Shown piece after piece: positions 2,863 through 20,548 of a stretch of DNA of 20,548 nt; the first letter of the stretch is position 1, and each line of letters opens with the position of its first letter. Source of the stretch: a virus; the IMG/VR virus record IMGVR_UViG_3300031551_000009, positions 1-20,548 of that record; one strand, given 5' to 3'. Below the pieces are notes generated by a model, which saw only the letters and a list, made by a program, of their open reading frames with translations, ran no database searches and was not told the origin of the DNA. The translations under genes were made by a program, and so were the position numbers.

Positions 2863-2874
2863 AAAGGGCAAAAT

Positions 2875-3234: not shown

Positions 3235-3288
3235 GTGTTAATTATTGAGGAAATCGAGAACATAACTAACTATTAGAAAGGATAAGAA

Positions 3289-4812: not shown

Positions 4813-4813
4813 T

Positions 4814-5059: not shown

Positions 5060-5931
5060 AATTCAAAGACATATTATCTGAATACAATATCCCAATTGCA
5101 CCCGCTGGGCATCACCACGCACGCGAGGGCTGGATACAGATTGACTGCCCCTACTGCGGTAGGGACTCCCATAAATGGCACATGGGCTATTCGATAGCGG
5201 GGAACTACGTCAACTGTTGGCGTTGTGGAAGTCACAGGCTCATAGACACCCTAATGGAAATCACAGGACTGTCCTACAATCAAGCCAAAAAGCTGCTGAG
5301 GTCACTTGACCATGAGCATATTGAAGAAAAGCAGAAACCCCTCGGCAGGCTCGTCATGCCAACAGGCATACAAAAACTTCATCAAGCGCACAAATGCTAT
5401 CTGCGTGACAGAGGATTTGATTGGAAGGAAATTGAGTACATCTGGAAAATATGGGGCATAACAGTTTCGAGCAGGCTCCCTTGGCGGATATGGATTCCGA
5501 TCCACTACCACGGGGAGATCGTCAGCTGGACGACACGCTCAATCTCAAAGAACCCTAAAATTACAAGATATATTAGTGCAGGTGAAAATGAAGAAGCAAT
5601 GCCTCATAAGGAACTCCTTTACGGAGAGGACTTCGCACGATACGCGGTCATTGTGGTCGAAGGCGTGTTCGATGCTTGGAGAATCGGTCAGGGGGCAGTT
5701 GCTACATTTGGTTCTGGGTACTCAAACGGACAGCTCGAACGAATCGCGAAGTATCCAACGAGGGCGATCTGTTTTGACAACGAACATGAGGCACAGAGAC
5801 GTGCGAGAAAGCTGGTCAATGATCTGTCAGTCTTTTCTGGTGATACTTACAATGTGAGTTTGGATGCGAAGGACGCATCAGATGAAAACGAAAAAAACAT
5901 AGAACGATTGAGAAAGGAGATTTTGGGATGA
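5056..5931 (+). CDS. DNA primase (zinc finger plus TOPRIM)
   Basis: This encodes 291 residues. A CHC2-like zinc finger uses Cys31, Cys34, Cys54 and Cys57 (CPYC ... CWRC) and would read the template for priming. The middle resembles the DnaG/T7 gp4 primase linker region. TOPRIM follows, with the glutamate motif VVEGVFDAW (Glu202) and an acidic motif ICFDNE (Asp241), which coordinate the catalytic metals. There is no helicase domain, so it works with the separate DnaB-type protein at 7673. It overlaps both neighbours by 4 bases, indicating coupled translation. It synthesises the RNA primers for the lagging strand. Confidence 0.85.
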   Translation: MKFKDILSEYNIPIAPAGHHHAREGWIQIDCPYCGRDSHKWHMGYSIAGNYVNCWRCGSHRLIDTLMEITGLSYNQAKKLLRSLDHEHIEEKQKPLGRLVMPTGIQKLHQAHKCYLRDRGFDWKEIEYIWKIWGITVSSRLPWRIWIPIHYHGEIVSWTTRSISKNPKITRYISAGENEEAMPHKELLYGEDFARYAVIVVEGVFDAWRIGQGAVATFGSGYSNGQLERIAKYPTRAICFDNEHEAQRRARKLVNDLSVFSGDTYNVSLDAKDASDENEKNIERLRKEILG

Positions 5932-6026
5932 ACATTCCAACTGGGGTTATGATAATATATACAATCGGGTTTGTTATTGGGGCGTCTTTGGGATTTCTGT
6001 TGGTCTATCTACATTCAAAACTCTAA
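5928..6026 (+). CDS. 32-residue membrane peptide
   Basis: The ATG at 5928 overlaps the primase TGA (ATGA) and has GGAG in the primase 3' end as ribosome-binding site. The product is one hydrophobic helix (about residues 7-28: VMIIYTIGFVIGASLGFLLV) with a short basic end. Its DNA also contains TGATAATATATACAA (5950-5964), repeated exactly at 6186-6200 before the next gene. Function is unknown. Confidence 0.5.
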   Translation: MNIPTGVMIIYTIGFVIGASLGFLLVYLHSKL

Positions 6027-6106
6027 AATTTGAGTTCTAAGCCCTTAAAATTTAAAATCAGTATTAAACTATGTATTAGTGTGGGAAAATCGATTAGAAC
6101 ACATGT

Positions 6107-6137
6107 CAGGCCCCTTAAAAGTGATGTTAGGAGCCTG
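6107..6137 (+). other. Stem-loop in the leader between primase and winged-helix genes
   Basis: CAGGCCCC (6107-6114) pairs with GGAGCCTG (6130-6137) with one mismatch, around a 15-base loop. No T-run follows, so it is not a standard terminator. It lies in the 205-base gene-free stretch 6027-6231, which otherwise holds AT-rich sequence with two TTAAAATTT-like inverted elements and the promoter-like motif at 6186. Confidence 0.35.
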
Positions 6138-6185
6138 TCTGAAACGTTATTTTGGGAATTTTTCACGAGATACGTTTATTTTAAG

Positions 6186-6200
6186 TGATAATATATACAA
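6186..6200 (+). promoter_or_regulatory. GATAATAT-type promoter-like motif
   Basis: TGATAATATATACAA lies 32 bases before the ATG of the winged-helix gene. The core GATAATATA matches the motif found before the genes at 9143, 9489 and 18642. No convincing -35 box sits 16-18 bases upstream here. The same 15 bases also occur at 5950-5964. Confidence 0.4.
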
Positions 6201-6231
6201 ATATGATATTCTAATACGATGAAAGTTGACG

Positions 6232-6732
6232 ATGAAATCTGAACAAAACAAATCAGAATATGAGCATTACCTAATACCGAGAGGGGTGTTGATTCGCAAA
6301 GATTTGACACCGAACGGCAAGCTGCTATTTACCGTAATACATACGATATGTAGCAGGTATGGATATTGCACTGCAAAAAATGAACAACTCGGCAATTTAC
6401 TTAATATCAGCAAGACGTCCATAAGTTTACTAATAAAATCATTGTATGAAAATAAAAAGTTAATCAAGTGTGAATATCTTAGGAAAAGATATATACGTAT
6501 TATCTTTCTACACAATGTTGACAAGGAATTCAAAAGTATCACTTTAAGTAGGATTAAAACCGCTCTAAACCATTTAAGCAGGGTTAAAGATATATATAAT
6601 ATATATAGGCAAGAATATTTTAATGATATTCTTGCCGATGATGATATTGATAATTTAGAAATTAAGGCTAAAATTTGGACAGATAAGGAAGGCGTCAAAA
6701 GAGGTAAGGATGTAATTGATTATGAAGAATAA
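6232..6732 (+). CDS. Winged-helix DNA-binding protein, possible replication initiator
   Basis: I start at ATG 6232; a TTG two codons upstream is also in frame. The product is 166 residues. Residues about 10-85 (IPRGVLIRKDLTPNGKLLFT to KRYIRIIFL) have the shape of a phage/plasmid winged helix of the HTH_36 or replication-initiator type. The recognition part is LGNLLNISKTSISLLIKSLYENKKLI followed by a beta wing. The C-terminus is charged and helical. Such proteins bind origins or early promoters. The position between primase and replicative helicase favours a replication role. Its last codons (GKDVIDYEE) carry a 15-bp sequence that reappears beyond the following methyltransferase gene. Confidence 0.6.
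   Translation: MKSEQNKSEYEHYLIPRGVLIRKDLTPNGKLLFTVIHTICSRYGYCTAKNEQLGNLLNISKTSISLLIKSLYENKKLIKCEYLRKRYIRIIFLHNVDKEFKSITLSRIKTALNHLSRVKDIYNIYRQEYFNDILADDDIDNLEIKAKIWTDKEGVKRGKDVIDYEE
6706..6720 (+). repeat. 15-bp direct repeat flanking the MT-A70 gene (partner at 7349-7363)
   Basis: AAGGATGTAATTGAT occurs at 6706-6720, in the last codons of the winged-helix gene, and again at 7349-7363, 31 bases after the MT-A70 stop. In both places it can be read as KDVID. The pair brackets the methyltransferase gene with almost no other sequence. Confidence 0.6.
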
Positions 6733-7318
6733 GAAACTTCCCAATAAAAAATACCAAATAATATATGCAGATCCGCCTTGGAGTTATTATAATGATAGCA
6801 ATGCAAACTCTAATTGTACCACCATACGAGGTATGAGAAGACCTCCATACAAAGTAATGAGTTCAAATGCCATAAAAAATCTACCTATTTCCAAACTTGC
6901 TGATGCTAATTGTATTTTGTTCATTTGGACGACTGATTATCATTTAGAAAGATGCATTGAGATAATAAATGCTTGGGGTTTTACGTATAAAACAATTGGG
7001 TTCGTTTGGGCTAAGAAAACAAGAAGAGGAGCTTCTGTTTGTTTTATGGGTGCTTACACAATGAAAAGTGGTGTCGAGTTGTGCTTGTTAGCTACCAGAG
7101 GCAGATCTATCCACAAATTGATAAAAAGTCATAAAGTCAGGGCTTTGGTTGAAAGCCAGAGGAGTGCCCATTCTAAAAAACCTGATGAGGTTAGAAAAAG
7201 AATTGTAGAATTGATGGGCGACTTGCCACGGATAGAATTATTTGCGAGAGATCACATACAAGGTTGGGATGTTTGGGGTGATGAGGTTCCCGATAAGGTA
7301 ACGGGGTTTTCAATCTAA
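6722..7318 (+). CDS. MT-A70 family adenine-N6 methyltransferase
   Basis: The product is 198 residues from ATG 6722; a TTG at 6716 is better spaced from AAGGA and may be the real start. The catalytic DPPW motif is at 17-20 (IIYADPPWSYY). It is followed by the family-typical LFIWTTDYHLERC, the FVWAK strand, GVELCLLATRGR and a late SKKPDEVRKRIVELMGDLPRIELFAR block ending WDVWGDE. This full set is diagnostic of MT-A70-type enzymes, which transfer methyl from S-adenosylmethionine to adenine N6. In phages these usually modify the genome against host restriction. There is no restriction partner. The gene overlaps the end of the winged-helix gene by 11 bases and is flanked by a 15-bp direct repeat. 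Confidence 0.85.
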   Translation: MKNKKLPNKKYQIIYADPPWSYYNDSNANSNCTTIRGMRRPPYKVMSSNAIKNLPISKLADANCILFIWTTDYHLERCIEIINAWGFTYKTIGFVWAKKTRRGASVCFMGAYTMKSGVELCLLATRGRSIHKLIKSHKVRALVESQRSAHSKKPDEVRKRIVELMGDLPRIELFARDHIQGWDVWGDEVPDKVTGFSI

Positions 7319-7441
7319 GAAGTATTTATCTCAACCAACATTATTTCAAAGGATGTAATTGATAGCGAGCATGAGGCCAAGTTTGTTTGAAAAATCAAAA
7401 AAGAAATTGAACAGGAAGACGAAAGAGTCATTTGGATTGAT
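7319..7441 (+). other. Intergenic stretch with a possible gene-end remnant
   Basis: From 7349 one frame reads KDVIDSEHEAKFV before TGA. This resembles the C-terminus of the winged-helix protein (GKDVIDYEE) and may be the displaced original tail. An unrelated 24-codon ORF (7371-7445, MRPSLFEKSKKKLNRKTK at its start) ends in an ATGA overlap with the next gene but has no good ribosome-binding site. I cannot decide whether it is translated. Confidence 0.4.
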
Positions 7442-7666
7442 ATGAAAAAAACTAAAACAATAAAGCTGACAGATGAACATATGCTGCGTCAATTGATTAA
7501 GCAGGCAAATGGTTTTGGGGCCAGATTAAGATTATATCGATCGAAGAATAAAAAGTATGATTTTTGCGTTTCAGGCTCGGATATAGTCCAAAGGCAAATT
7601 AAAATGGGAGGTACTGCAGACTGGCTTTATGATGAATTGCTGAAAAAATTTACTGATTATTTTTGA
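7442..7666 (+). CDS. 74-residue hypothetical protein
   Basis: The ATG at 7442 opens a small basic protein with a Lys-rich start, a helical LTDEHMLRQLIKQAN stretch and a C-terminal WLYDELLKKFTDYF. No motif, signal or membrane segment is seen. The ribosome-binding site is weak (GGA), so translation may be coupled to the 24-codon ORF whose stop overlaps the ATG. It lies immediately before the DnaB-type helicase (6 bases between stop and start) and may be expressed with it. No family is recognised. Confidence 0.5.
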   Translation: MKKTKTIKLTDEHMLRQLIKQANGFGARLRLYRSKNKKYDFCVSGSDIVQRQIKMGGTADWLYDELLKKFTDYF

Positions 7667-7672
7667 GAATTT

Positions 7673-9070
7673 ATGCGAATAGATAAGAAAGATAATAGTG
7701 ACGAACGCAGAATTTTAATTGCCATGATTGTCGATTCCGTTGTGTTGGCGAGAATCAACTCAAAGTGGCAGCCTCGGTCTTTCAAGTCCAAATGGGCGAA
7801 CATAATCGCTCGATGGTGTTTGAATTATTATCAGCGATATAATAAAGCCCCCATGAAGCACATCGAGAGTCTATTTGAGGGATGGTCGTCGAGGACCCAA
7901 GACAAGAGCAGTGTGAATCTTGTAAGCAGTTTCCTATCGTCATTGAGTGACGAATACGAAGATTTGAAGTCCGAGAGTAATAGTGATTACATGATCGACA
8001 TCGCATCTCAGTATTTTAATCAGGTTAGGATTGAGAATTTGATTGAGCAAGTCGAATCCGATATATCTGATGGAAATTCCGACAGAGCACATGATAGATT
8101 GGTTGGTTACAGCAGAATCGAGATGGGTGCTGGCGAGGGCATCGACGTCCTGCAAAATGTGGATGTAATTCGGAAAGCGTTTGAAACTGATAGGAAAGAA
8201 ACACTGATTGAATTTCAGGGTGCTCTTGGAAAGTTTTTCAGGAATTCTCTTGAGCGTGAGGGTTTTATTTCTTTTATGGGCAAAAAGGGTGTTGGCAAGT
8301 CTTTCTGGCTGATGGCCATTGCGTACGAAGCCATGTTGCAGCGGAGGAAAGTTGCGATGTTTGAAGTTGGTGACATGGGTGAAAGTCAAACAATGAGGCG
8401 TCTGATGATTCGTGCATCTAAGCAACCCCGCTATGCTTGTGATGTGTATTATCCGACAAGGGTTTGGTACAATGAAAAGAAAAGGAAAGTAGAACGAGAA
8501 TTTGAGCTAAAGGAATTCACTAAAAGTTTAAGTTGGAGAAAGGCTGCAAAGGCGTGTGCAGAGGTAATGCATAAGAAAATCAGGAGTAAGGAGACATATC
8601 TGAAGTTGTCGTGTCACTTTAATTCAACGCTCAGCGTCGATGGGATTGAAAGCATTCTGCAAGATTGGGAGAGGAGTTCTTGGATTCCAGATGTGATAGT
8701 CATTGATTATGCAGATATTCTCAAAATGGAATATGCTAGCATAGAAGGTCGTGATCGCATAAACGAAACATGGAAGCGTTTGCGTGCACTGAGTCAACGG
8801 AGACATTGCTTATTGGTGACAGCTACCCAGTCAGATGCGTCGTCTTATGACAGGAATATTTTGAAGATGGCGAATTTTACGGATGACAGGAGAAAGATTG
8901 ATTCAGTGACCGGAATGATTGGCATAAATCAGACTGAGCATGAAAAAAAGCGTGGAATTATGCGTCTGAACTGGATTTCGCTCCGAGACGACGAATTCCA
9001 TTCGAGCCGGTGTGTGCATGTCGCAGGGTGTCTCGCACTTGCAAATCCTGCTATTTGCAGTTGCTTTTGA
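7673..9070 (+). CDS. DnaB-type replicative DNA helicase
   Basis: This encodes 465 residues. The N-terminal ~170 residues are helical, as in the DnaB primase-binding region. A RecA-like SF4 domain follows: Walker A GKKGVGKS (203-210), a conserved VAMFEVGDMGESQTMRRLM strand-helix, Walker B VIVIDYAD (Asp345), a Gln-containing LLVTATQSDASS motif (sensor/H3), and a late arginine-rich segment. The end, HVAGCLALANPAICS, matches the terminal strand seen in phage DnaB-like proteins. It would unwind the fork on the lagging-strand template with the separate primase at 5056. It is about the normal family length. A hairpin overlaps its stop and a new promoter follows. Confidence 0.85.
   Translation: MRIDKKDNSDERRILIAMIVDSVVLARINSKWQPRSFKSKWANIIARWCLNYYQRYNKAPMKHIESLFEGWSSRTQDKSSVNLVSSFLSSLSDEYEDLKSESNSDYMIDIASQYFNQVRIENLIEQVESDISDGNSDRAHDRLVGYSRIEMGAGEGIDVLQNVDVIRKAFETDRKETLIEFQGALGKFFRNSLEREGFISFMGKKGVGKSFWLMAIAYEAMLQRRKVAMFEVGDMGESQTMRRLMIRASKQPRYACDVYYPTRVWYNEKKRKVEREFELKEFTKSLSWRKAAKACAEVMHKKIRSKETYLKLSCHFNSTLSVDGIESILQDWERSSWIPDVIVIDYADILKMEYASIEGRDRINETWKRLRALSQRRHCLLVTATQSDASSYDRNILKMANFTDDRRKIDSVTGMIGINQTEHEKKRGIMRLNWISLRDDEFHSSRCVHVAGCLALANPAICSCF
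9040..9068 (+). terminator. Possible weak terminator overlapping the helicase end
   Basis: TGCAAAT (9040-9046) and ATTTGCA (9053-9059) form a perfect 7-bp stem with a 6-base loop, followed by GTTGCTTTTG. The stem is AT-rich and the T-run short, so termination would be partial. It lies just before the promoter at 9085. Confidence 0.35.
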
Positions 9071-9084
9071 AAATCTTTTGCGTT

Positions 9085-9112
9085 TTGGTTGTGTTTTTCA
9101 CGATAATATGAT
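9085..9112 (+). promoter_or_regulatory. Promoter with GATAATAT motif before the 80-residue gene
   Basis: TTGGTT (9085-9090), 16 bases, then TATGAT (9107-9112). The -10 is embedded in TTTTTCACGATAATATGATAAG, which matches the sites at 9419-9447 and 18525-18553. Confidence 0.5.
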
Positions 9113-9142
9113 AAGGATGAAGTAAATTAAAGGAGAAACGAG

Positions 9143-9385
9143 TTGACTTATAAACAAGCAATGAGACCTAAAGATGGTTGGGCCTGCGCCGAAGGTGAAT
9201 CGTTAATTGCGAGTGCATCAACTATGTTGGCACGTTATCATGCAATGAATCCAGAATCAATTTTTGAGTGGGCAAAAAAACACTGTCAAAATTTGTATGA
9301 TTTGCTATTGGATAATCCTCGAAGTTTATTACCTCCCGATAGTCGTATTTTAACTGCTGTGTTGAATGATACAGATTTAGATTAA
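9143..9385 (+). CDS. 80-residue hypothetical protein, TTG start
   Basis: The TTG at 9143 lies 7 bases after AAAGGAG, a strong ribosome-binding site, and no ATG fits that site. The product is a soluble, mostly helical protein (YKQAMRPKDGWACAEGESL, then a FEWAKKHCQNLYDLLL helix) ending in an acidic LNDTDLD. It has its own promoter upstream and another downstream, so it may be an individually controlled early gene. No family is recognised. Confidence 0.6.
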   Translation: MTYKQAMRPKDGWACAEGESLIASASTMLARYHAMNPESIFEWAKKHCQNLYDLLLDNPRSLLPPDSRILTAVLNDTDLD

Positions 9386-9418
9386 GAATTTTTATAAAAT
9401 GGGAAGAATTTTTGCTAC

Positions 9419-9447
9419 TTTACAATGGTTTTTTGTGATAATATAAT
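9419..9447 (+). promoter_or_regulatory. Strong sigma-70-type promoter with GATAATAT motif
   Basis: TTTACA (9419-9424), exactly 17 bases, then TATAAT (9442-9447), in the context TTTTTTGTGATAATATAATAAG. This is the best consensus promoter in the window. It would drive the genes from 9489 onward, including the long replication operon. Confidence 0.65.
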
Positions 9448-9488
9448 AAGATGAAAGGGAGAACGAAACAGGAAAATGGAGGTGGTAA

Positions 9489-9698
9489 ATGATCAAAACA
9501 ACGTCATGTTCATTTCAAGATCGGACGCCACAAGAATTCGTCGAGGATATGATCTCGAACTGCAGGAGCTTGGATCAGATTCTTGTAGTTGTTGCAAATA
9601 CCATGTGGAAAAATCGCAAGGATGAAATTGTGGAAGCATATCACGAACTGATGGAAAACAAAAAGCGAATTTCTAATCGAAATAGAGAGGATAAATGA
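9489..9698 (+). CDS. 69-residue hypothetical protein
   Basis: GGAGGTGGTAA precedes the ATG at 9489, one of the strongest ribosome-binding sites in the window. The protein is helical and charged, with a Cys near each end of its first third (TTSCSF, SNCRS), a hydrophobic QILVVVANTMW helix and a basic tail. The stop overlaps the next start (ATGA at 9695), so the two are translationally coupled. No family is recognised. Confidence 0.6.
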   Translation: MIKTTSCSFQDRTPQEFVEDMISNCRSLDQILVVVANTMWKNRKDEIVEAYHELMENKKRISNRNREDK

Positions 9699-10339
9699 TG
9701 GGCAAGAAAAAAGAAGAGAATCTGGGAACAATAACAAAGATCAGGGCCATCAAGATTTTTGAGGCTTTGGGATTCAAGACTGCTGACAAATGGGATGTGA
9801 CTCGATTGCAGAAGAAGCTTGGTAATTTGAACATGCTTGTCGAGGGAACCGGGCTTGATGAGAAGAACCAGAAAAAAGTCAACGAAATTCTGCGAGCTCA
9901 GAAAAACGGTCTCAAAGTTACTGTAATTGATGTCGAAAATGCTGAGAGGAACAGGCAGCAGGAGCGGGAAATCAGAGATGCCCTGGAGCGTGGGAGAGAA
10001 CGGGCTGCCGAAAAGAAAGCACGAGCTGCGAAGAATGAGGAAAAAGATGCGGTGAAGAATGTGGCGGAATCTGTGGTAGCGAAGAAGCAGGCAACGAGGA
10101 TTGCTGGGAAAAAGAAAGATGGATCCCCAGGTGTAATAATGTCGGTTTTGGAATTTGTAAAAAACCAAGGGCCAATTTCGAAAAAGGAAATTTTGGATTT
10201 ATTGAAAAAGAGATTTCCAAACAGAAACCCAGAATCTATGGGGCGTACAATTTCTCAGATACCGAGCTATTTGTCGAGGAAAAAAAGCATTAGTAACATT
10301 AAAACAGATGATAAAGGTCTGTATATTTTCAAGAAATAA
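9698..10339 (+). CDS. Basic coiled-coil protein with C-terminal winged helix
   Basis: Two ATGs sit at 9695 and 9698; GAGAGG (9685-9690) is better spaced for 9698. The product is 213 residues. The N-terminal ~55 residues form a small helical domain (IRAIKIFEALGFK, WDVTRLQKKLGNL). Residues about 75-130 are an Arg/Glu/Lys/Ala-rich coiled coil. The C-terminal ~65 residues are a winged-helix module (VLEFVKNQGPISKKEILDLL, then MGRTISQIPSYL and a KGLYIFKK wing) like those in phage and plasmid DNA-binding proteins. It probably binds DNA through the C-terminus and oligomerises through the coil. It heads the operon that encodes the clamp and polymerase. The exact role is unknown. Confidence 0.62.
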   Translation: MGKKKEENLGTITKIRAIKIFEALGFKTADKWDVTRLQKKLGNLNMLVEGTGLDEKNQKKVNEILRAQKNGLKVTVIDVENAERNRQQEREIRDALERGRERAAEKKARAAKNEEKDAVKNVAESVVAKKQATRIAGKKKDGSPGVIMSVLEFVKNQGPISKKEILDLLKKRFPNRNPESMGRTISQIPSYLSRKKSISNIKTDDKGLYIFKK

Positions 10340-11250
10340 TGAAAGTTTTGTTAGTAAATGTTGATAGTATCCTTCCGAATCTTGCATTGGAAAAGCTTCG
10401 TGTATATCACGAGCGGCGGGGTGCTAAAATTTATAGAATAAAAGATAAATCCCTTTTGCCATTTATGGATGTTTACGACAAAATCTATGTCTCTTGTGTA
10501 TTTGATTATAACAAACATCGATGTAAGAAATGGGAGGGTATTGCAGAAATTGGAGGTAGTGGTTATAGTTTGAAAAAGCAATTGCCAGCGGTAATCGAAA
10601 AGATCAAACCAAAAATGAATTTTGGTTTTACAACACGGGGCTGCATAAGGAATTGTCCTTGGTGTATTGTTCCACAGAAAGAAGGTAAGCTTAGTATTGT
10701 TGGAGATGTTTATGATTTGTGGGATGGAAAGTCAAAAGATATTATAATCATGGATAATAATATTCTTGCAGCACCCGAACATTTTTTCAAAATTAGTGGC
10801 CAACTTAAAAAGGAAAGTTTAAGAGTTGACTTTAACCAAGGTCTTGATCACCGTTTATTGACTGACAAAATTTGCAAAGAACTTTTTTCCTTGCATCATT
10901 GTAAAGAAATAAGGTTTGCATTTGATCATATTTCATATAAAAAATCGGTTATGAAAGCATTAAAAATGCTGAGGAAAAACGGATTGAAAGATTGGCGAAC
11001 ACGGTGGTATATTTATGTTAGTATTAGTGATACTTTCGATACTGTTATGGAGAGGATAAATATACTCCGCAAAGCTAAGCAATTGGTTTATCTGATGAAA
11101 GATAGGGCTGTTTATAATAAATCAGAATATAAGGAAATTTTTTCATGGTGTAATTTTCCTGGCTTTTATAAAGCTACTCCATATTATGAAGGTTGCCTGT
11201 TTAGCAAATCAAAAAAAATATATAAAGAAACCAAACCAAATTTATTTTGA
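10339..11250 (+). CDS. Radical SAM enzyme, substrate unknown
   Basis: This encodes 303 residues whose ATG shares one base with the preceding TAA. Residues 1-90 look like a Rossmann-type domain related to B12-binding domains (VLLVNVDSILPNLALEKLRVYH). The radical SAM cluster motif is C102-x3-C106-x2-C109 (TTRGCIRNCPWCIVPQKEGK), which binds the 4Fe-4S cluster that cleaves S-adenosylmethionine. The GCIRNCPWCIVP context is close to that of MiaB/RimO-type and B12-type radical SAM proteins. A later DFNQGLDHRLL segment fits the TIM-barrel core. It lies between a DNA-binding protein and the sliding clamp, so a nucleotide or DNA modification role is plausible but not shown. Its codons are noticeably more AT-rich than those of the clamp. 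Confidence 0.72.
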   Translation: MKVLLVNVDSILPNLALEKLRVYHERRGAKIYRIKDKSLLPFMDVYDKIYVSCVFDYNKHRCKKWEGIAEIGGSGYSLKKQLPAVIEKIKPKMNFGFTTRGCIRNCPWCIVPQKEGKLSIVGDVYDLWDGKSKDIIIMDNNILAAPEHFFKISGQLKKESLRVDFNQGLDHRLLTDKICKELFSLHHCKEIRFAFDHISYKKSVMKALKMLRKNGLKDWRTRWYIYVSISDTFDTVMERINILRKAKQLVYLMKDRAVYNKSEYKEIFSWCNFPGFYKATPYYEGCLFSKSKKIYKETKPNLF

Positions 11251-11262
11251 GGAGATTCAAAG

Positions 11263-12291
11263 ATGCGGATAAATCGCGAAGAGTTTTTGAAACAGCTTGA
11301 ATCCGTCCTACCAGGCTTGTCAACGAAGGAAATCATAGAACAGTCGTCTTGTTTCATTTTCAAGGGCAAGACCGTTAATACATACAATGACGAGATTGCC
11401 TGTTCGCAGAAATCACTGTTGAAGATTGAGGGTGCAGTGCCTGCAATGCCATTCATTTCCATACTCCGTAAGTTGAAGGAGGATGAATTGGAAATCTCCG
11501 CCGGTGAAAATAATAAGGGCACGACTTTGCTTATCAAGGCTAAGCAGAAGCAGGCGGGAATCAATATGGAACAGGATATTTTGCTACCAATTGATGCTGT
11601 AGACAAGCCGAAGAAATGGAAGAAACTACCTGAAAATTTTGCTGACGCGATAGCGATTGTTCAACCATGCGCGGGAAATAATGAAGCGCGAGTTGTGACG
11701 AATTATATTCACATCACTTCAAAATGGATGGAGGCCTGCGACAACTACCAAGTTACACGATTTAGGATGAAGACTGATGTGAGTGGGTCTATTTTGATAA
11801 GAAGGGATTCGATCAAGCACATTATATCATTGGATATGGTGGAATTCAGTGAAACAAAACACTGGATTCATTTTAGGAATTCTGATGGTTTAGTACTTAG
11901 CTGCCGTCATTGGGTAGATGAATATCCTTCTGATGATATATCAGAGATACTGCAAGTTGAGGGCGCACCATTGAATCTTCCGAAAGGACTGAAGGAGTCC
12001 GTCGAAAAGGCGGAGATTTTCTCGTCAGAGAATGTCGGCGCCAATAATGTGATTGTGAATATCAAGAAGGGAAAATTCAAGATTACTGGTAAGGGTGTGT
12101 CCGGATGGTTCACTGAAATCAAGAAATCTAAATACGATGGGACATCTTTGCAGTTTACGATTCCGCCGAAGTTGTTGGTAGAACTCGTCCAACATTATAA
12201 CGAATGCGAAGTGACAAAGGATCGTCTGAAGGTTAAGGGTGTAAAGTTTGTCTATGTTACCGTATTAGGTATGGTGGAAGAAAAGGAATGA
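11263..12291 (+). CDS. DnaN-like sliding clamp (DNA polymerase processivity factor)
   Basis: This encodes 342 residues from ATG 11263, with GAGGAG upstream. The protein is built of repeating alpha/beta units with many short beta strands. It has a beta-clamp style N-terminus (a helix EEFLKQLESVLPGL, then strands around FIFKGKTVNTYND). A middle part carries ILIRRDSIKHIISLDMVEFS, and the last domain TIPPKLLVELVQHYNECEV has the IPPKLL helix typical of the third DnaN domain. It is slightly shorter than bacterial DnaN (~366). The DnaX-like loader at 16791 and the family A polymerase at 15017 support this role. It would encircle DNA as a dimer and tether the polymerase. The sequence match is weak by eye, so the call rests partly on context. 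Confidence 0.65.
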   Translation: MRINREEFLKQLESVLPGLSTKEIIEQSSCFIFKGKTVNTYNDEIACSQKSLLKIEGAVPAMPFISILRKLKEDELEISAGENNKGTTLLIKAKQKQAGINMEQDILLPIDAVDKPKKWKKLPENFADAIAIVQPCAGNNEARVVTNYIHITSKWMEACDNYQVTRFRMKTDVSGSILIRRDSIKHIISLDMVEFSETKHWIHFRNSDGLVLSCRHWVDEYPSDDISEILQVEGAPLNLPKGLKESVEKAEIFSSENVGANNVIVNIKKGKFKITGKGVSGWFTEIKKSKYDGTSLQFTIPPKLLVELVQHYNECEVTKDRLKVKGVKFVYVTVLGMVEEKE

Positions 12292-12926
12292 AATTGCCGA
12301 TAGGGAAAATTATCTGTGGCGATTGCTCAAAATCTATGAGATTGTTTCCAGAGCGTTCAATTGATTTGATTTTTGTTGATCCGCCCTATGTGAAAGAAGG
12401 GATTTATCTATATGAGCAAATAGCTCGTGAATCGTCTCGTATTTTGAAGCCTGGTAAGTTCGCTGTTTTTTATGCGTCTGATTATTGGCTTGACTTAACT
12501 TTTCCATTCATGTTAAAATTTCTTGATTATTTTTATTTGTTTCATAAGATAAATAGCCACCAAGTCGGCCAATTACATCCAAGGAAAATTTTTGGTGGTG
12601 CTAAAAGTATTCTTGTGTTTTCTAAGGGAAAGGCAAATCCATTGAATTGGGTTTCTAATATTGTTCCTAAAGATAAACCGGAAAAGCATCATAGAAGCGA
12701 CCGATGGGAACAATCTATTGGTGATGCTTACTTTTTTATAAAAAACTTTTCAAATCAGGGTGATGTTGTACTGGATCCGAATGTTGGTTCGGGAACAACT
12801 TGCATTGCTGCTGAGCGATTAGGCCGTAAGTGGATAGGCATAGATATAGATAAAAGTCAATGTGAAATGTCAAGAAAGCGAATTGCGTATGAAAGGCGGA
12901 ATCCTGGATTTAGGATATTCAAATGA
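12288..12926 (+). CDS. DNA methyltransferase, beta-class (DPPY type)
   Basis: This encodes 212 residues overlapping the clamp gene by 4 bases (ATGA). The order is catalytic motif IV first (DLIFVDPPY, 31-34), S-adenosylmethionine motif I late (DPNVGSGTT, 163-171), then GIDID, which is the beta-class permutation of N6-adenine/N4-cytosine methyltransferases. Motif I has Asn-Val in place of the usual Phe-Cys. At 212 residues it is short, with a small target-recognition region. The start MKLPIGKIICGDC is nearly the same as that of the methyltransferase at 17702, so the two are paralogues. There is no restriction enzyme nearby; the likely role is to modify phage DNA against host restriction. Confidence 0.8.
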   Translation: MKLPIGKIICGDCSKSMRLFPERSIDLIFVDPPYVKEGIYLYEQIARESSRILKPGKFAVFYASDYWLDLTFPFMLKFLDYFYLFHKINSHQVGQLHPRKIFGGAKSILVFSKGKANPLNWVSNIVPKDKPEKHHRSDRWEQSIGDAYFFIKNFSNQGDVVLDPNVGSGTTCIAAERLGRKWIGIDIDKSQCEMSRKRIAYERRNPGFRIFK

Positions 12927-14128
12927 CAAAAGGTTTCTTCTCATCCTCTAAAATACAGAGCAAACGAAAGACGGGCAATTTCGCTCTTTGCGGTTCGTGC
13001 GGTCTGTATAGGCATTGCAAGTCTCCGAAAATGCCCGCGACTGGCAAAGGTAGGAAGAAGATATTGTTTGTTGCGGAGGCTCCAGGTAAAGACGAGGACA
13101 GAGACAACGTGCAGTTGGTAGGGCGTGCTGGTAAGTTGCTGCGAAGATTTCTGAAATCTCTCGATGTCGATTTGGATGTCGATTGCGTAAAGACGAATGC
13201 GGTGATTTGCCGACCGAGGAACAACAAGAAGCCAGAAGATTATATGATAAAAGCTTGTAGACCAAATCTGATGAAAACCATTAAGGAATACAATCCGAAC
13301 GTAATTTTCTTATTAGGCGAAGTAGCGTGCAAATCACTGTTGTCAGAAATGTGGAAAGAAGATATTGGTGATATTAGTCGATGGGCCGGTTTCTGCATCC
13401 CTTGCAGAGAGCTGAATGCTTGGATTGTTCCTACGTATCATCCTTCTTATATACTTAGGATGGGCAATGATAAAATACTTGATAGGCTTTTCAAAAGTCA
13501 TTTGAAGTTGGGGATCAGTAAGGCGAAAAGCAAGCCTTGGGATGAAGTTCCCGACTATAAAAAACAGATAGAGGTAATTACAAGGCCATTTGAATCTGCA
13601 AAGATACTTAGGGAAATGATGAAGAAGGGTGGTGTGGTATCATTTGATTTTGAGACTAATTGTCTGAAACCTGATGGTGAAGGAACAGAAATCGTAAGTT
13701 GTTCCGTTTGTTGGCGGGGCCGAAGGACGATTTCGTATCCTTGGGCGGGTGAGGCAATAGAAGCCACCAATGAAATGACTAAATCTGCAATGCCAAAGAT
13801 AGCATCGAATTTGAAATTCGAGGATCGTTGGACACGAGCGAAGTTGGGGCATCCCGTAATGAATTGGTATTGGGACACTATGATTGCCGCACATGTTCTT
13901 GACAATCGTCCACACATTACGGGGCTCAAGTTTCAGGCATTTGTGAATTTAGGGCAGGAGAATTACAATACTCATATAGAACCATTCCTGCGAGCGGTGA
14001 AGGGAAGCAAATTCAATCGAGTTAAGGAATTGGATTTGCGGGATTTACTATTGTATGGTGGACTCGACAGTTATCTTGAATATTGGTTGGCGATGAAACA
14101 AATTAAACTTATTGGAGAAAAGAAATGA
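12923..14128 (+). CDS. Uracil-DNA glycosylase (family 4-like) fused to 3'-5' exonuclease
   Basis: This encodes 401 residues overlapping the previous gene by 4 bases. Residues 20-195 are a family 4-type uracil-DNA glycosylase. Cys23, Cys26, Cys96 and Cys112 have the spacing of the 4Fe-4S ligands known in family 4 enzymes; the catalytic-loop motif is AEAPGKDED (51-59), and the late motif is PTYHPSYILR (170-179). Residues 235-401 are a DnaQ-like proofreading domain: Exo I FDFET (Asp242, Glu244), a divergent Exo II ASNLKFED, Exo III YGGLD (Tyr378, Asp382). The protein stops just where a family A polymerase would continue into its polymerase domain, which is instead encoded at 15017. It would remove or detect uracil and proofread for that polymerase. 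Confidence 0.85.
   Translation: MTKGFFSSSKIQSKRKTGNFALCGSCGLYRHCKSPKMPATGKGRKKILFVAEAPGKDEDRDNVQLVGRAGKLLRRFLKSLDVDLDVDCVKTNAVICRPRNNKKPEDYMIKACRPNLMKTIKEYNPNVIFLLGEVACKSLLSEMWKEDIGDISRWAGFCIPCRELNAWIVPTYHPSYILRMGNDKILDRLFKSHLKLGISKAKSKPWDEVPDYKKQIEVITRPFESAKILREMMKKGGVVSFDFETNCLKPDGEGTEIVSCSVCWRGRRTISYPWAGEAIEATNEMTKSAMPKIASNLKFEDRWTRAKLGHPVMNWYWDTMIAAHVLDNRPHITGLKFQAFVNLGQENYNTHIEPFLRAVKGSKFNRVKELDLRDLLLYGGLDSYLEYWLAMKQIKLIGEKK
14054..14119 (+). repeat. 66-bp direct repeat of the exonuclease gene end (partner 14634-14699)
   Basis: The last codons of the exonuclease gene, from TATGGTG onward, recur 580 bp downstream with one mismatch in 66 bases. The copy ends with the GGAGA (14114-14118) that serves as ribosome-binding site for the following gene. 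In the second copy it is fused to the duplicated polymerase start. Confidence 0.9.
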
Positions 14129-14445: not shown

Positions 14446-14640
14446 AACCTATAACTAACCAAGCCTATAAATTATTGCATGATGGATGTGTTGCTTTGTC
14501 TCAAGTCGAGGCGAACGGCATACGCATAGATGTCGATTATCTTAAAAAGGCAATTGACAATACCGGCGTACGGATTACAGAACTTTCAAACAGCCTCAAG
14601 AAATATAAGATTTACAAGATATGGAGAAAAACTTATGGTG
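14442..14640 (+). repeat. 199-bp direct repeat of the polymerase gene start (partner 15017-15215)
   Basis: The two copies align over 199 bases without gaps and differ at about 27 positions, most of them at third codon positions. Both run from the ATG to the shared TATGGTG. This divergence is far greater than the single mismatch in the adjoining 66-bp exonuclease-end repeat. Confidence 0.9.
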
Positions 14641-14711
14641 GACTCGACAGTTATCTTGAATATTGGTTGGCGATGAAACAAATTAGACTTATTGGAGAAG
14701 AAGTTGATTAA
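14442..14711 (+). pseudogene. Chimeric ORF: polymerase start fused to exonuclease end
   Basis: The 89-residue frame consists of residues 1-66 of a family A polymerase (about 86% identical in DNA to the start of the gene at 15017, no gaps). It is joined at TATGGTG (14634-14640) to the last 22 or so residues of the exonuclease (GLDSYLEYWLAMKQIRLIGE). Neither part is a complete domain, so a separate enzyme activity is unlikely. The frame has stayed open, so a short peptide may still be made. It is the joint left by a recombination event and separates the MazG-type gene from the next ORF. Confidence 0.85.
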
Positions 14712-15017
14712 ATGCAATTTTTCAAAGTGACTACTGTAAATAGAAAAAGTTTGGGATTAAGGAATAACCCAACAATTCTAACTTTTCCTATAGGTAAATG
14801 GGTGAAATCTCCTATTGTAAAGAATGATAATTCTGATGAAGGTGGAATTTGGTTGGCTGTTTCATTATCAGGTGCTAAACGTCTTAGGCAATATATGTTT
14901 GATAGATATGGAAAGCATAGTAGGATTTTTAAGGCATCTATTGGAAATATTCTTTTTAGGAATAGTTATAGAATTAAAACAGATAAAATTCGATGTGATA
15001 GTGAGATAGAAATTTAA
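14712..15017 (+). CDS. 101-residue hypothetical protein in the exonuclease-polymerase joint
   Basis: The ATG at 14712 lies 13 bases after the GGAGA in the duplicated exonuclease end, which is longer than ideal. The product is a basic, beta-rich protein (FFKVTTVNRKSLGL, then a GKWVKSPIV strand, a GGIWLAVSLSGAKRLRQYM helix, and a closing FRNSYRIKTDKI). It is not homologous to the MazG-type gene that fills the equivalent place upstream. It overlaps the polymerase start by one base (TAATG). Its codons are AT-rich. I see no nuclease motif (no HNH, GIY-YIG or LAGLIDADG). The ordered composition suggests a real folded protein of unknown role. Confidence 0.6.
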   Translation: MQFFKVTTVNRKSLGLRNNPTILTFPIGKWVKSPIVKNDNSDEGGIWLAVSLSGAKRLRQYMFDRYGKHSRIFKASIGNILFRNSYRIKTDKIRCDSEIEI

Positions 15018-16396
15018 TGAAGCCTATAACTAACCAAGCCTACAAATTGCTGCATGATGGGTGCGTTGCTCTGTCTCAAGTCGAGGCGAATGGCATACAC
15101 ATAAATGTCGATTATCTTGAGAGGGCAATTGACAATACAGGTACACGAATTACAGAGCTTTCAAATAGCCTTAAGAAATATAAAATTTATAGAGTGTGGA
15201 GAAAAACTTATGGTGTTAAAACGAATCTCGGCAGTCGGGAACAGTTGGGCAAGGTTCTTTTCGATGTAATGAAATATCCCTGTCTTTCACGTACCAAGAC
15301 GGGTAGGCCGACTGCGGACAAAATAAATCTGAAATCTACGGATCTGAAGTTTGTCGATGATTATTTGAAAATTGAAAAGCTGAAGAAGGCAAGGAGCACC
15401 TATTTGCGGAATATACTGCGAGAAACTGTTGATGGTTTTTTGCATCCCAATTTTCCGTTGAATCTTGTGCGTTCATATCGGGGAAGTAGTGATCATCCAA
15501 ACTTTACGAATATTCCAATAAAAGACCTTGAAATCAGCGAACTTGTTAGACGTGCCTTCATCGCACGCGAAAATCATCAGATTGTTGAGATTGATTTTAA
15601 GGGTTCTGAGATTTGTGGTGCCACTTGCTATCATAAAGATCCGCGTATGATTAAGTATATGGAAAATCCAAAGCTTGATATGCACCGTGATATGGCGGCT
15701 GAAATCTATATGCTCAAGAAGAGTCAGGTGACGCACTGGATGCGTGACGCTGGAAAAAATAGGTTCGTCTTTGCAGAGTTCTACGGTGATTGGTATAAGT
15801 CGTGTGCTCCTGATTTGTGGAAGGCAATAAAAGAGTTCAATTTGAAGATTGATGGTATTAGCCTATATAAACATCTTGAGTCGAATGGAATTACTGAGTT
15901 GGGTGCTTGCGATCCGGATAAAGAGCCTGAAGACGGTACATTTGAGAAGCACATTCAAGACATCGAGTATGGTTTCTGGAATAAAAGGTTCAAAGTATAT
16001 AATCAATGGAAGAAAGACTGGTGGCGGGCATACCAAGATAATGGTTATTTTGAAATGCTTACTGGTTTTGTGGTTGCAGGAAGCCTCAATAGAAAGCAGG
16101 CAATTAACTATCCTATTCAGGGAACATCCTTTCATTTGCTGTTGTGGTCGTTGATTAGGATACAGAAATTGTTGCGAAAGTATAAAATGAGGTCATTGAT
16201 AGTCGGTCAGATACATGACAGCATAGTTGGCGATATTTACAGAAGGGAGCGAAAAGATTATTTTGACATAGTTAAGCAGGTCATCTACGAAGATTTGCGA
16301 AAACATTGGAATTGGATTATCGTGCCTCTGAGGGTTGAGGCTTCTGTTGCCCCCGTTGGGGGTTCGTGGTACGAGAAGGAGGAAATTGAGATATGA
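15017..16396 (+). CDS. Family A DNA polymerase (polymerase domain only)
   Basis: This encodes 459 residues and starts at ATG 15017. It begins with the thumb-type helix that follows an exonuclease domain in complete enzymes (LLHDGCVALSQVEANGI), and contains no exonuclease motif. Motif A is EIDFKGSEICGA with catalytic Asp193, replacing the usual DYSQIELR. The O-helix (motif B) is RDAGKNRFVFAEFYGD (243-258), with the Arg, Lys and YG kept but the spacing altered. Motif C is GQIHDSIVGD with His400-Asp401 and Ser where many have Glu. Both catalytic Asp residues are present, so it should be active. Proofreading would come from the UDG-exonuclease protein at 12923, and processivity from the clamp at 11263. 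Confidence 0.88.
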   Translation: MKPITNQAYKLLHDGCVALSQVEANGIHINVDYLERAIDNTGTRITELSNSLKKYKIYRVWRKTYGVKTNLGSREQLGKVLFDVMKYPCLSRTKTGRPTADKINLKSTDLKFVDDYLKIEKLKKARSTYLRNILRETVDGFLHPNFPLNLVRSYRGSSDHPNFTNIPIKDLEISELVRRAFIARENHQIVEIDFKGSEICGATCYHKDPRMIKYMENPKLDMHRDMAAEIYMLKKSQVTHWMRDAGKNRFVFAEFYGDWYKSCAPDLWKAIKEFNLKIDGISLYKHLESNGITELGACDPDKEPEDGTFEKHIQDIEYGFWNKRFKVYNQWKKDWWRAYQDNGYFEMLTGFVVAGSLNRKQAINYPIQGTSFHLLLWSLIRIQKLLRKYKMRSLIVGQIHDSIVGDIYRRERKDYFDIVKQVIYEDLRKHWNWIIVPLRVEASVAPVGGSWYEKEEIEI

Positions 16397-18524: not shown

Positions 18525-18553
18525 TTTAGAGTGATTTTTTATGATAATATAAT
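18525..18553 (+). promoter_or_regulatory. Promoter with GATAATAT motif reading into the NNGGT tract
   Basis: TTTAGA (18525-18530), 17 bases, then TATAAT (18548-18553) in the context TTTTTTATGATAATATAATATA. Thirteen bases (TGATAATATAATA) are identical to the 9419-9447 promoter. Transcription would begin near 18560, that is, at the beginning of the NNGGT tract. Confidence 0.6.
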
Positions 18554-18555
18554 AT

Positions 18556-18620
18556 ATGGTATGGTTTGGTTTGGTTTGGTAGGTTGAGGTGGGGTATGGT
18601 AAGGTCTGGTAAGGTAAGGT
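18556..18620 (+). repeat. NNGGT pentanucleotide tract 1
   Basis: GGT occurs every 5 bases from 18558 to 18620: 13 GGT in all, 12 in strict register and one (18582) shifted by a base. The two spacer bases vary at the 5' end (AT, TT, GG, CT) and become AA at the 3' end. The tract forms the leader between the promoter at 18525-18553 and the metallophosphoesterase gene. It is followed by AATTTTTATG and a GAGGAG ribosome-binding site. Confidence 0.92.
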
Positions 18621-18641
18621 AATTTTTATGAGGAGACTCAT

Positions 18642-19541
18642 ATGAAACAGAAGAAACGAAGTAATTCCAAAAAAGTCACCGAAGTTCCGATCAATAATCT
18701 CGTTGTCATTTCTGACACACATTGTGGCTGTCAGTTCGGTTTATGTCCACCTAATAAAGTTCGGCTTGATGGCGGTGGCTACTATTCCCCGAACCGATGG
18801 CAGCGTGAAATCTGGGATTATTGGCGATTCTTCTGGGATAAATGGATTGCGGATAGGGAAGTTCTGCACGATGAGCCTTTCGCGGTGGTATTCAATGGTG
18901 ACGCGATTGACGGCGTTCACCATGGGGCTACAACTCAAATATCGCAGAATATCGCTGACCAAGTTAATGTTGCACAGCAAATTCTTGAGCCTGTTGTCGA
19001 AAAGTGTCAAGGGCGTTTTTATTTCATACGAGGTACTGAATCCCACACAGGCAAGTCCGGTGAGTACGAGGAAATGCTGGCTAAGCGTCTTGGTGCGGTT
19101 CCCAACGAGGACGGGAAGTATTCGCGTGGTGAAATTTATATCAGGCTGAATTACGGGCTGATTCATTTGACGCATCACATCGGGACTACGGGTTCGCTGG
19201 CGTATGAGTCAAGCGCTGTCTTAAAGGAAATTGAGCAGATTCTGTCGGACTCTGGAAGATGGGGTTTGGAGGTGCCCGATGCTATCATACGTTCGCACAG
19301 GCATCGCAATATTGAAGTGCGTTTGAGGTTTAAGAAGGACAATCGTTTCGGGTTTATCAGTGGTGCCGTGACGGCGGCCTGGCAGGCGCGTACACCTTTT
19401 GTATACAGGACGACTTCAAGATACACATCCCCTCATGTTGGGGGGACTCTTGTCCGAAGTGGAGATCAAGATGTGTACACCCGTCACTGCATTTGGAACT
19501 TGCAGAGACCTAAGGTTCAGGAAATTGAAAAAATAAAATGA
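18642..19541 (+). CDS. Calcineurin-like metallophosphoesterase
   Basis: This encodes 299 residues from ATG 18642, with GAGGAG 7 bases upstream. A 5-codon ORF (18628-18645) overlaps the start. Metal-binding motifs in order: SDTHCG (Asp25, His27), FNGDAIDG (the GD motif), RGTESHTG (in place of the classical GN[HE]), a HLTHHIG His pair, and RSHRHR (in place of GHTH). This is the metallophosphoesterase set, binding two divalent metals. Such enzymes hydrolyse phosphomonoesters, diesters or nucleic acids. Phage versions occur near structural or replication genes, but the substrate is unknown. The codon use is more GC-rich than that of the preceding methyltransferase. It lies first in its own promoted unit, between two NNGGT tracts. 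Confidence 0.82.
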   Translation: MKQKKRSNSKKVTEVPINNLVVISDTHCGCQFGLCPPNKVRLDGGGYYSPNRWQREIWDYWRFFWDKWIADREVLHDEPFAVVFNGDAIDGVHHGATTQISQNIADQVNVAQQILEPVVEKCQGRFYFIRGTESHTGKSGEYEEMLAKRLGAVPNEDGKYSRGEIYIRLNYGLIHLTHHIGTTGSLAYESSAVLKEIEQILSDSGRWGLEVPDAIIRSHRHRNIEVRLRFKKDNRFGFISGAVTAAWQARTPFVYRTTSRYTSPHVGGTLVRSGDQDVYTRHCIWNLQRPKVQEIEKIK

Positions 19542-19545
19542 TTTT

Positions 19546-19598
19546 GGTCTGGTGTGGTCAGGTGGGGTGCGGTCTGGTATGGTAAGGTAAGGTAAGGT
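19546..19598 (+). repeat. NNGGT pentanucleotide tract 2
   Basis: Eleven GGT units in perfect 5-base register start 5 bases after the metallophosphoesterase stop. Spacers vary first (CT, GT, CA, GG, GC, CT, AT) and then are AA three times. The last AAGG (19594-19597) stands 6 bases before ATG 19604 and is the only candidate ribosome-binding site for that gene. Confidence 0.93.
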
Positions 19599-19603
19599 TT
19601 TTT

Positions 19604-19939
19604 ATGTTGACACAAAAGAAAATCGAAGAAATGTGGGAGGAAGTTGGTAGACCAGCGCCGGAGAGCGAACTTTGTGATAATGTCAGCCGGTGCTTTGATG
19701 CCAGCTTCACAATGGACGATATTATGAGAGGTGATTTTTTAGTGCCCCCTTTCGATGCCAAGAAATTTGCAAAGGAGGAGTTAGCAAAGGCTAAAAAAGA
19801 AAAAGCTTTAGAACATCGAAAACTTGTCGTGAATTCAGAGCGTAAGTTGCCTAATTTTCAGAGATGGAAAGAAGAAGATAAATCGCAAAAGTCTAAAGGC
19901 GCATTAAAACCAAAAAAGGAATGGTTTAAGAAAAAATAA
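19604..19939 (+). CDS. 111-residue basic hypothetical protein
   Basis: The ATG at 19604 follows the final AAGG of the NNGGT tract at a 6-base spacing. The N-terminal half is acidic to neutral and helical (KKIEEMWEEVGRPAPESEL, then FTMDDIMRGDFLVPPFD). The C-terminal half is very Lys-rich and charged, ending WFKKK, and is likely disordered or nucleic-acid binding. There are two Cys and no metal motif, signal or membrane segment. It lies between two NNGGT tracts in the metallophosphoesterase unit. No family is recognised. Confidence 0.65.
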   Translation: MLTQKKIEEMWEEVGRPAPESELCDNVSRCFDASFTMDDIMRGDFLVPPFDAKKFAKEELAKAKKEKALEHRKLVVNSERKLPNFQRWKEEDKSQKSKGALKPKKEWFKKK

Positions 19940-19942
19940 TGA

Positions 19943-19995
19943 GGTGTGGTAAGGTATGGTGCGGTAGGGTTTGGTAAGGTAAGGTAAGGTAAGGT
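19943..19995 (+). repeat. NNGGT pentanucleotide tract 3
   Basis: Eleven GGT units in perfect 5-base register start 3 bases after the preceding stop. Spacers vary first (GT, AA, AT, GC, AG, TT) and end in four successive AA. It is followed by TTTTTATT and a separate GAAAGGG ribosome-binding site for the next gene. Confidence 0.93.
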
Positions 19996-20016: not shown

Positions 20017-20548
20017 ATGTTTACTTTAATGTGTGAATTGGAAGGTACGAGTCCTTTGAGTTTCTCCCGTCCCGTGGCGGAACCGAAGAAACGTGGCGAG
20101 CTGCCTGCGGACTGGGAAAATCGTTGCTGGAAACAACGTCTTCACAGCAAGAAAGATCAGTTGTTTATACCCGCAATGGCCTTTAAGCTGGCTTTGGAGA
20201 ATGCTGCGGCAGGTGTTAGGATTCCTGGTGGGGGTAGTGCCACCTATTCCAAGGTGATGCGTAGCGGCGTGATGATTTTTGAGGATGTATTGCTTGATGC
20301 AGAGGAAAACGATGTTGTTTGTGAGGAGCTATTCGTTCCCTCTGACGGAAAGCGGGGTGGTGGCAAGCGAGTTCTCAAGAAATTTCCGACACTTGAAAAG
20401 ACGTGGATGGGTATGCTGGAAATCGAATGCATTCATCCGAAACTGAATAAGGAAGTGCTTATTCGCTTTTTGGAAGATGCTGGTCGTTTTGTTGGGCTGC
20501 TGCGGTGGAGACCCCAAAACGGTGGCTTATATGGTCGTTTCAGGGTTA
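20017..20548 (+). CDS. Unrecognised phage protein (3' end outside window)
   Basis: The ATG at 20017 has GAAAGGG (20003-20009) at normal spacing. The frame stays open to the window edge, giving 177 residues. The visible part is soluble and mixed alpha/beta. It has an FIPAMAFKLALENAA helix, a VRIPGGGSATYSKVM loop, a GKRGGGKRVLKKFPTLEKTWM segment and, near the edge, FLEDAGRFVGLLRWRPQNGGLYGRFRV. The last block looks complete and conserved, so the gene may end soon after. I have an impression of having seen similar GKFIG..RPQNGG..GRF ends in other phage proteins of unknown function but cannot name the family. It is the third gene of the unit separated by NNGGT tracts. Confidence 0.65.
   Translation, partial: MFTLMCELEGTSPLSFSRPVAEPKKRGELPADWENRCWKQRLHSKKDQLFIPAMAFKLALENAAAGVRIPGGGSATYSKVMRSGVMIFEDVLLDAEENDVVCEELFVPSDGKRGGGKRVLKKFPTLEKTWMGMLEIECIHPKLNKEVLIRFLEDAGRFVGLLRWRPQNGGLYGRFRV

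What the first reader, a model, noticed from the sequence alone, without database searches (positions are those of the whole stretch)
18556..19995. Three NNGGT pentanucleotide tracts in consecutive gene leaders
Each of the three leaders from 18.5 kb on holds 11-13 GGT units with a strict 5-base period (18556-18620, 19546-19598, 19943-19995). Spacer bases are variable at the 5' end and become AA at the 3' end, then a T-run and a start codon follow. Variable spacers with a fixed period argue for selection on GG spacing and against simple slippage. All three are on the sense strand and none lies in a coding frame. The first would be the very 5' end of the mRNA from the promoter at 18525. In RNA, GG every 5 bases could stack as two-layer G-quadruplexes with 3-base loops, present a row of weak AAGG Shine-Dalgarno sites (the last one serves the gene at 19604), or bind a multivalent protein. 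DNA-level roles (strand exchange, packaging, recombination between leaders to shuffle genes) are also possible. I know of no described element of this form.
Basis: partly seen in the sequence, partly recalled or inferred. Interest (0 to 1): 0.82.

Follow-up and report, generated by a model that had tools for sequence, protein, structure and literature searches.

The report
Split-code guide RNAs of phage VIPR
The three odd GGTNN repeat tracts are most probably guide-RNA genes of a recently described phage-encoded, CRISPR-like targeting system (VIPR), whose protein gene begins just after the third tract; in this virus's branch of the family the fixed three-letter part of the repeat appears to have changed from GGT to GGC, GAC, AAT or CTC.

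Summary
Three sense-strand GGTNN arrays lie between genes (12 GGT plus one GTT, then 11 and 11 GGT). A Markov model of the window gives runs of at most 3. High-entropy GGTNN arrays are widespread in viral contigs, lie on one strand per record, usually start right after a stop codon, and are rare with the triplet reversed. Gene content explains them: 45 of 50 array-bearing records encode one ~200-aa family, against 2 of 50 control records. The window's member is the truncated ORF at 20017. A family profile hits the solved SUSP1 Vipr (PDB 36pp, E=4e-45), and the AlphaFold model (pLDDT 94) matches Cas7/Csm3 RAMPs (Z 12.7). These are therefore vrRNAs of a VIPR system (preprint PMC13142463): the protein holds GGY, and the NN pairs jointly read a DNA target with one-base skips. 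Window-specific features are five single arrays spread among replication genes, constant (AAGGT)n 3' ends, and no detected vap. The window's clade (100/99 support) keeps the 5-nt period but uses GGT, GGC, GAC, ART or YTC cores. The preprint mentions "a related consensus" in a supplement I could not read. The target was not found.

The parts
18525..18553 (+). putative promoter (TTTAGA-17-TATAAT) of array 1; the transcript would start in the first repeat unit
   Evidence: consensus scan 10/12, not above shuffles in number; GATAATATAATATA conserved in L129 upstream of the same array. Inferred.
18558..18620 (+). vrRNA array 1: 13 units, NN = AT TT TT TT AG GA GG AT AA CT AA AA (AA)
   Evidence: near-identical virus L130 lacks 3 units at the 5' side and has 5 more at the 3' side
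18628..18641 (+). small hairpin ATGAG-GAGA-CTCAT after array 1, overlapping the Shine-Dalgarno of the 18642 gene; possible tail
   Evidence: z -2.2 in window, -1.65 in L129 where the stem is kept as CTCGT (U-A to U-G)
18642..19541 (+). 299-aa calcineurin-like phosphoesterase-like protein flanked by arrays 1 and 2; weak candidate accessory (vap) gene
   Evidence: sub-threshold Pfam Metallophos E=0.013; distant homolog directly upstream of array and vipr in L096
19546..19598 (+). vrRNA array 2: 11 GGT, NN = CT GT CA GG GC CT AT AA AA AA
   Evidence: starts 4 nt after the stop codon of the 299-aa gene
19604..19939 (+). 111-aa lysine-rich ORF between arrays 2 and 3, no family; the last AAGG of array 2 may serve as its Shine-Dalgarno
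19943..19995 (+). vrRNA array 3: 11 GGT, NN = GT AA AT GC AG TT AA AA AA AA
   Evidence: 3 nt after a stop codon, 21 nt before vipr
20017..20548 (+). vipr gene (Cas7-like RAMP), 177 codons, cut by the window end; full 184 aa at L130:11376-11930, followed 3 nt later by array 4

Best explanation
The arrays are genes for vrRNAs, the guide RNAs of a phage-encoded VIPR system, and the gene starting at 20017 is its Vipr protein. Copies of Vipr, a small Cas7-like RAMP, would line up along the transcript, one per 5 nt, each holding one GGU and presenting the two free NN bases. The NN pairs of consecutive units together read a DNA target in the pattern NNxNNx..., blocking transcription of a competing phage or satellite. 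Shown here: arrays, period, free NN, strand, gene association, fold and clade. Taken from the preprint for other members: RNA binding, the 1-nt skip rule, repression and inter-phage targets. Inferred for this virus: that the arrays are expressed and processed, that the constant 3' (AAGGT)2-5 units serve as anchor or tail rather than guide, and that the purpose is inter-phage conflict.
For: The 16 NN dinucleotides are nearly equally frequent. All 48 whole viral records carry arrays on one strand only. Vipr-family gene in 45/50 array records vs 2/50 control records. Profile hit to PDB 36pp 'SUSP1 Vipr protein' E=4e-45. All 37 members hit the same PHROG family, 4652, of unknown function. AlphaFold model pLDDT 94.1; Foldseek top hits are Cas7/Csm3 (E 4e-7), VIA-align Z 12.7 to Csm3 over 161 residues at 3.9 A. 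Array, vipr and array are adjacent. The preprint describes exactly this RNA: 9-16 YNNGG repeats with invariant GGY and hypervariable NN (PMC13142463).
Against: The window's own protein matches 36pp only weakly alone (E=0.083); the link needs the family profile or the fold. No convincing target for the guides of arrays 2-5 in viral contigs. No clade vap found in the window or L130, though both are fragments. No shared structured 3' tail: hairpins only after array 1 and one L129 array. Informative guides are short (6-10 NN) if the AA units are constant.
Confidence: 0.92

Rival explanations
1. Cis-acting mRNA leader elements: the GGU row binds a protein or ribosome on the downstream gene's own mRNA and controls its translation (TRAP-like, ribosome standby or Shine-Dalgarno row).
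For: Arrays lie between codirectional genes (56 of 92 array clusters have sense genes on both sides); the last AAGG of array 2 is well placed for the ATG at 19604; TRAP binds (G/U)AG triplets at a similar spacing (own knowledge).
Against: Arrays begin just after the upstream stop codon rather than at fixed distance before a start; some contigs hold 7-16 arrays in a row; no TRAP homolog in any of 48 viral records; the NN are free and nearly uniform; the associated protein is a Cas7-like RAMP.
Confidence: 0.04
2. The window's system is a VIPR relic: arrays are decaying or expanding by slippage and no longer guide anything.
For: Array 1 differs between two viruses 99.85% identical over 11.9 kb by gain and loss of whole units and holds one GTT unit; AA-rich 3' units; no target found.
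Against: Arrays 2 and 3 are intact, identical in both viruses and kept in register; L129 keeps position with different NN; vipr is open and well folded.
Confidence: 0.1
3. Neutral simple repeat or DNA-level element (G-quadruplex, recombination or packaging site, diversity-generating retroelement product).
For: Repeats do change length; the NN variability suggested A-to-N mutagenesis of a GGTAA template.
Against: No reverse transcriptase in 48 viral records; one strand only; clade relatives use GAC, AAT or CTC cores with the same period.
Confidence: 0.01

Closest known systems
VIPR system of Escherichia phage SUSP1 and the P. fulva prophage (PMC13142463; PDB 36pp)
   Same: Vipr-family RAMP gene; intergenic pentanucleotide arrays with GGY core and hypervariable NN on the same strand; phage-encoded; unit numbers in the 9-16 range.
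   Different: Window Vipr is in a separate 100/99 clade on a long stem; five single arrays spread among replication genes instead of one upstream and three clustered downstream; 3' ends are (AAGGT)n plus a T-run, no pseudoknot tail seen; clade vap not found.
Cas7/Csm3 backbone subunits of class 1 CRISPR (types III and VII)
   Same: Predicted fold (Z 12.7) and glycine-rich C-terminal motif; multiple subunits read a guide in periodic segments (own knowledge).
   Different: No cas operon or CRISPR repeat-spacer array recognised in the window; repeat unit is 5 nt with 2 variable bases.
TRAP (MtrB) and its (G/U)AGNN arrays
   Same: Triplet plus two free bases, about 11 units.
   Different: No TRAP-family gene in the array-bearing records; unrelated protein fold.

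Membership tests
VIPR | Vipr-family RAMP protein encoded next to the arrays | tested here: met
   profile to 36pp E=4e-45, same family as other array-associated genes, fold Z 12.7 to Csm3; array 3 lies 21 nt upstream
VIPR | vrRNA tract of 9-16 YNNGG repeats with invariant GGY and hypervariable NN | tested here: met
   13, 11, 11 units in the window, 11-12 in L130 arrays 4-5; near-uniform NN across the set
VIPR | phage-encoded, arrays on the strand of vipr | tested here: met
   IMG/VR record with phage replication genes
VIPR | invariable, structured 3' tail after the repeats | tested here: inconclusive
   constant (AAGGT)2-5 and T-run in all five arrays, hairpin only after array 1 and one L129 array
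VIPR | accessory vap gene (typical, not universal) | tested here: inconclusive
   homologous vap in the other clade members, none in window/L130/L129, all fragments; 299-aa phosphoesterase-like gene is a weak candidate
VIPR | targets in competing mobile elements by the 1-nt skip rule | tested here: inconclusive
   guides of arrays 2, 3, 4, 5 scanned: 1, 56, 58, 5 hits, no contig listed for more than one guide
VIPR | vrRNA expressed and bound by Vipr | not testable with these tools
   needs RNA sequencing and pull-down
Class 1 CRISPR-Cas | CRISPR repeat-spacer array plus cas operon | tested here: not met
   no cas gene among the proteins scanned and no CRISPR-type repeats among the tandem repeats; contig is a fragment
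Diversity-generating retroelement | reverse transcriptase | tested here: not met
   0 of 48 viral array records
TRAP regulation | MtrB/TRAP protein | tested here: not met
   0 of 48 viral records over the cut-off

The most novel reading that the evidence does not exclude
The fixed half of the VIPR code is itself evolvable: within the single well-supported Vipr clade that holds the window, the 5-nt guide arrays switched core triplet (GGT in the window and L013; GGC/RGC in L363 and L365; GAC in L360; AAT/AGT in L358/L359; CTC/TTC in L361/L364) while period, position beside vipr, strand, hypervariable NN and constant 3' units were kept. Different Viprs would thus read different scaffolds, giving orthogonal guide systems and a natural series for mapping which residues hold the core triplet. 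[quoted passage not shown] S17)', so part of this may already be in its supplement.
Probability: 0.5. Interest if true: 0.75.

Novelty: new member of a known kind. Interest (0 to 1): 0.55.

Why it matters
VIPR is proposed in the preprint as a forerunner of CRISPR. This window adds a deep-branching clade with guides dispersed through a replication region, and supplies natural variants in which the protein-held triplet differs. That makes the question of how a RAMP reads its guide scaffold, and whether it can be re-coded, directly testable by comparing 37-47% identical proteins.

Tried and rejected
Literature search for the bare motif strings found nothing relevant. DGR mutagenesis of a GGTAA template: no reverse transcriptase. 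TRAP-like ring: no homolog. Simple slippage: the reversed triplet gives mostly perfect repeats and only 4 degenerate arrays. Rfam: no family in 9 loci. Vipr has no Pfam or NCBIfam model at E<=0.01. Skip rules 0-3 tested on our own loci (4 Mb): no array matched beyond shuffled guides, as expected for so small a database. Targets of guides 2-5 in viral contigs: chance-like; the five array-5 hits encode acidic low-complexity stretches in different proteins. The window's Vipr has no tblastn match in 50,697 phage records, so no isolate of this lineage is known there. A second member of the 299-aa phosphoesterase next to vipr was found only in L096, too few to call it a vap.

Full report
Observation. 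The three tracts exist as described: 18558-18620 (12 GGT and one GTT), 19546-19598 (11 GGT), 19943-19995 (11 GGT), strict 5-nt register, NN free at the 5' side and AA-AA at the 3' side. First-order Markov sequences of the same length give GGT runs of at most 3 at this period. They lie between codirectional ORFs, not in a predicted gene.

Relatives. The near-identical virus L130 (99.85% over 11.9 kb) continues past the window and holds two more arrays (11934-11991, 14007-14064), the second 29 nt before a gp32-like single-strand-binding protein. L129 (86% identical at the neighbouring protein) keeps an array at the same place with different NN. Array 1 is the only array that differs between window and L130, by whole units at both ends.

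Breadth. The reversed triplet gave 67 stretches in the whole collection, almost all perfect repeats. In 257 Gb of cellular genomes a filtered pattern gave 47 stretches, 7 with high-entropy arrays. NN composition is nearly uniform. Each of 48 whole viral records has arrays on one strand only. Arrays usually start a few nt after the stop codon of a sense gene, with 7-16 arrays in a row in some contigs.

The protein. Clustering ORFs of the array loci gave one family in 47 loci, always on the array strand and often directly beside the array; the window member is the ORF at 20017. Searching whole records with the family profile finds it in 45 of 50 array records and 2 of 50 controls; at least one positive control (L133) itself carries a GGCNN-type array. 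The profile hits the SUSP1 Vipr chain in PDB 36pp at E=4e-45, although the window's sequence alone reaches only 0.083. The AlphaFold model (pLDDT 94.1) is a Cas7/Csm3-type RAMP.

Identification. The preprint PMC13142463 describes VIPR: a phage RAMP protein, Vipr, and vrRNAs of 9-16 YNNGG repeats whose NN bases jointly recognise double-stranded DNA with a one-base skip, repressing competing phages and satellites. The window meets the sequence and protein criteria. Expression, binding and targets are not shown for this virus. Four of the five guides were decoded by the skip rule and scanned; only chance-like hits resulted and no contig was listed for two guides.

Anatomy of this variant. Single arrays follow genes one by one over about 5 kb: after a methyltransferase gene, a phosphoesterase-like gene, a 111-aa ORF, vipr, and a small ORF. 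All end in (AAGGT)n and a T-run. Array 1 has a promoter-like sequence ending 4 nt upstream, kept in L129. The ~170-aa vap that follows vipr in the other clade members, weakly similar to the gene after vipr in SUSP2, was not found in window, L130 or L129; all are fragments.

Core triplet switching. A scan for the window's Vipr subclade returned 9 loci, two of which are already-known contigs (L357 is the L130 contig, L362 the L013 contig). The other seven have no GGT arrays by the same test but hold period-5 arrays beside vipr with other cores: GGC (L363, L365), GAC (L360), AAT/AGT (L358, L359), CTC/TTC (L361, L364). At periods 4, 6 and 7 these loci give none; at period 5 they give 252 clusters per Mb per strand, against 19 in control loci that include repeats selected for a 5-nt period. 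L360 has three arrays with different NN and one shared tail, ACCATCACAAGCCGCGC; the CTC arrays mostly end in CTCAACTCAA, the counterpart of the window's AAGGTAAGGT. The nine proteins form a 100/99 clade, with one long-branch warning concerning L112. Five isolated-phage Vipr loci checked (Gordonia ODay, Mycobacterium Brocalys, Cyanophage Cy-LDV1, Pseudomonas LESphi2, SUSP2) all use GGY. The preprint allows 'a related consensus' in a figure I could not read, so priority is open.

Verdict. The finding is real and important in kind, but the kind was described in 2026. The window is a new member in a divergent branch; the change of core triplet in that branch is the part worth following.

Noticed in passing
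L358:741-885, L359:4447-4602, L360:7884-7954, 8553-8623 and 9193-9258, L361:9071-9759, L364:9190-10035, L363:7853-9359, L365:1651-1716 and 2954-3048: Period-5 guide-like arrays with AAT/AGT, GAC, CTC/TTC or GGC cores beside Vipr genes of the window's clade.
   Followed up: yes
L083 (record of 111,906 bp), 2609-12920: 148 overlapping pattern matches in one phage record, with single arrays up to 46-67 units: an unusually large guide load.
   Followed up: no
L091:2-633: GGTNN arrays interleaved with CCGTGGGCATTAA ... TTACAGCCCACGG inverted repeats, so each array is framed by a hairpin; no Rfam match, and the record shows no Vipr (5.8 kb fragment).
   Followed up: partly
window 12923-14128 and 15017-16396; L129:6188-8917: DNA polymerase gene split in two ORFs; in L129 a GGTNN array (7425-7477) lies between the halves, in the window about 0.9 kb with three small ORFs.
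   Followed up: partly
window 14054-14122 and 14634-14703: 70-bp direct repeat, 97% identical, duplicating the end of polymerase part 1 around a small ORF and a duplicate start of part 2.
   Followed up: no
window 3304-3385: 15-bp tandem repeat that in one frame reads A(D/N)LxX, like a pentapeptide-repeat remnant.
   Followed up: no
window 18642-19541; L096:1799-2653: Phosphoesterase-like proteins (26-28% identical) next to vipr in two distant VIPR loci; possible accessory enzyme.
   Followed up: partly
L022, L027, L030, L095, L193, L216: A different repeat class, GGT(TA/AC/CT/TT) runs followed by AGCCCCGTTACG-like sequence or similar, with restricted NN; not VIPR-like by entropy.
   Followed up: no
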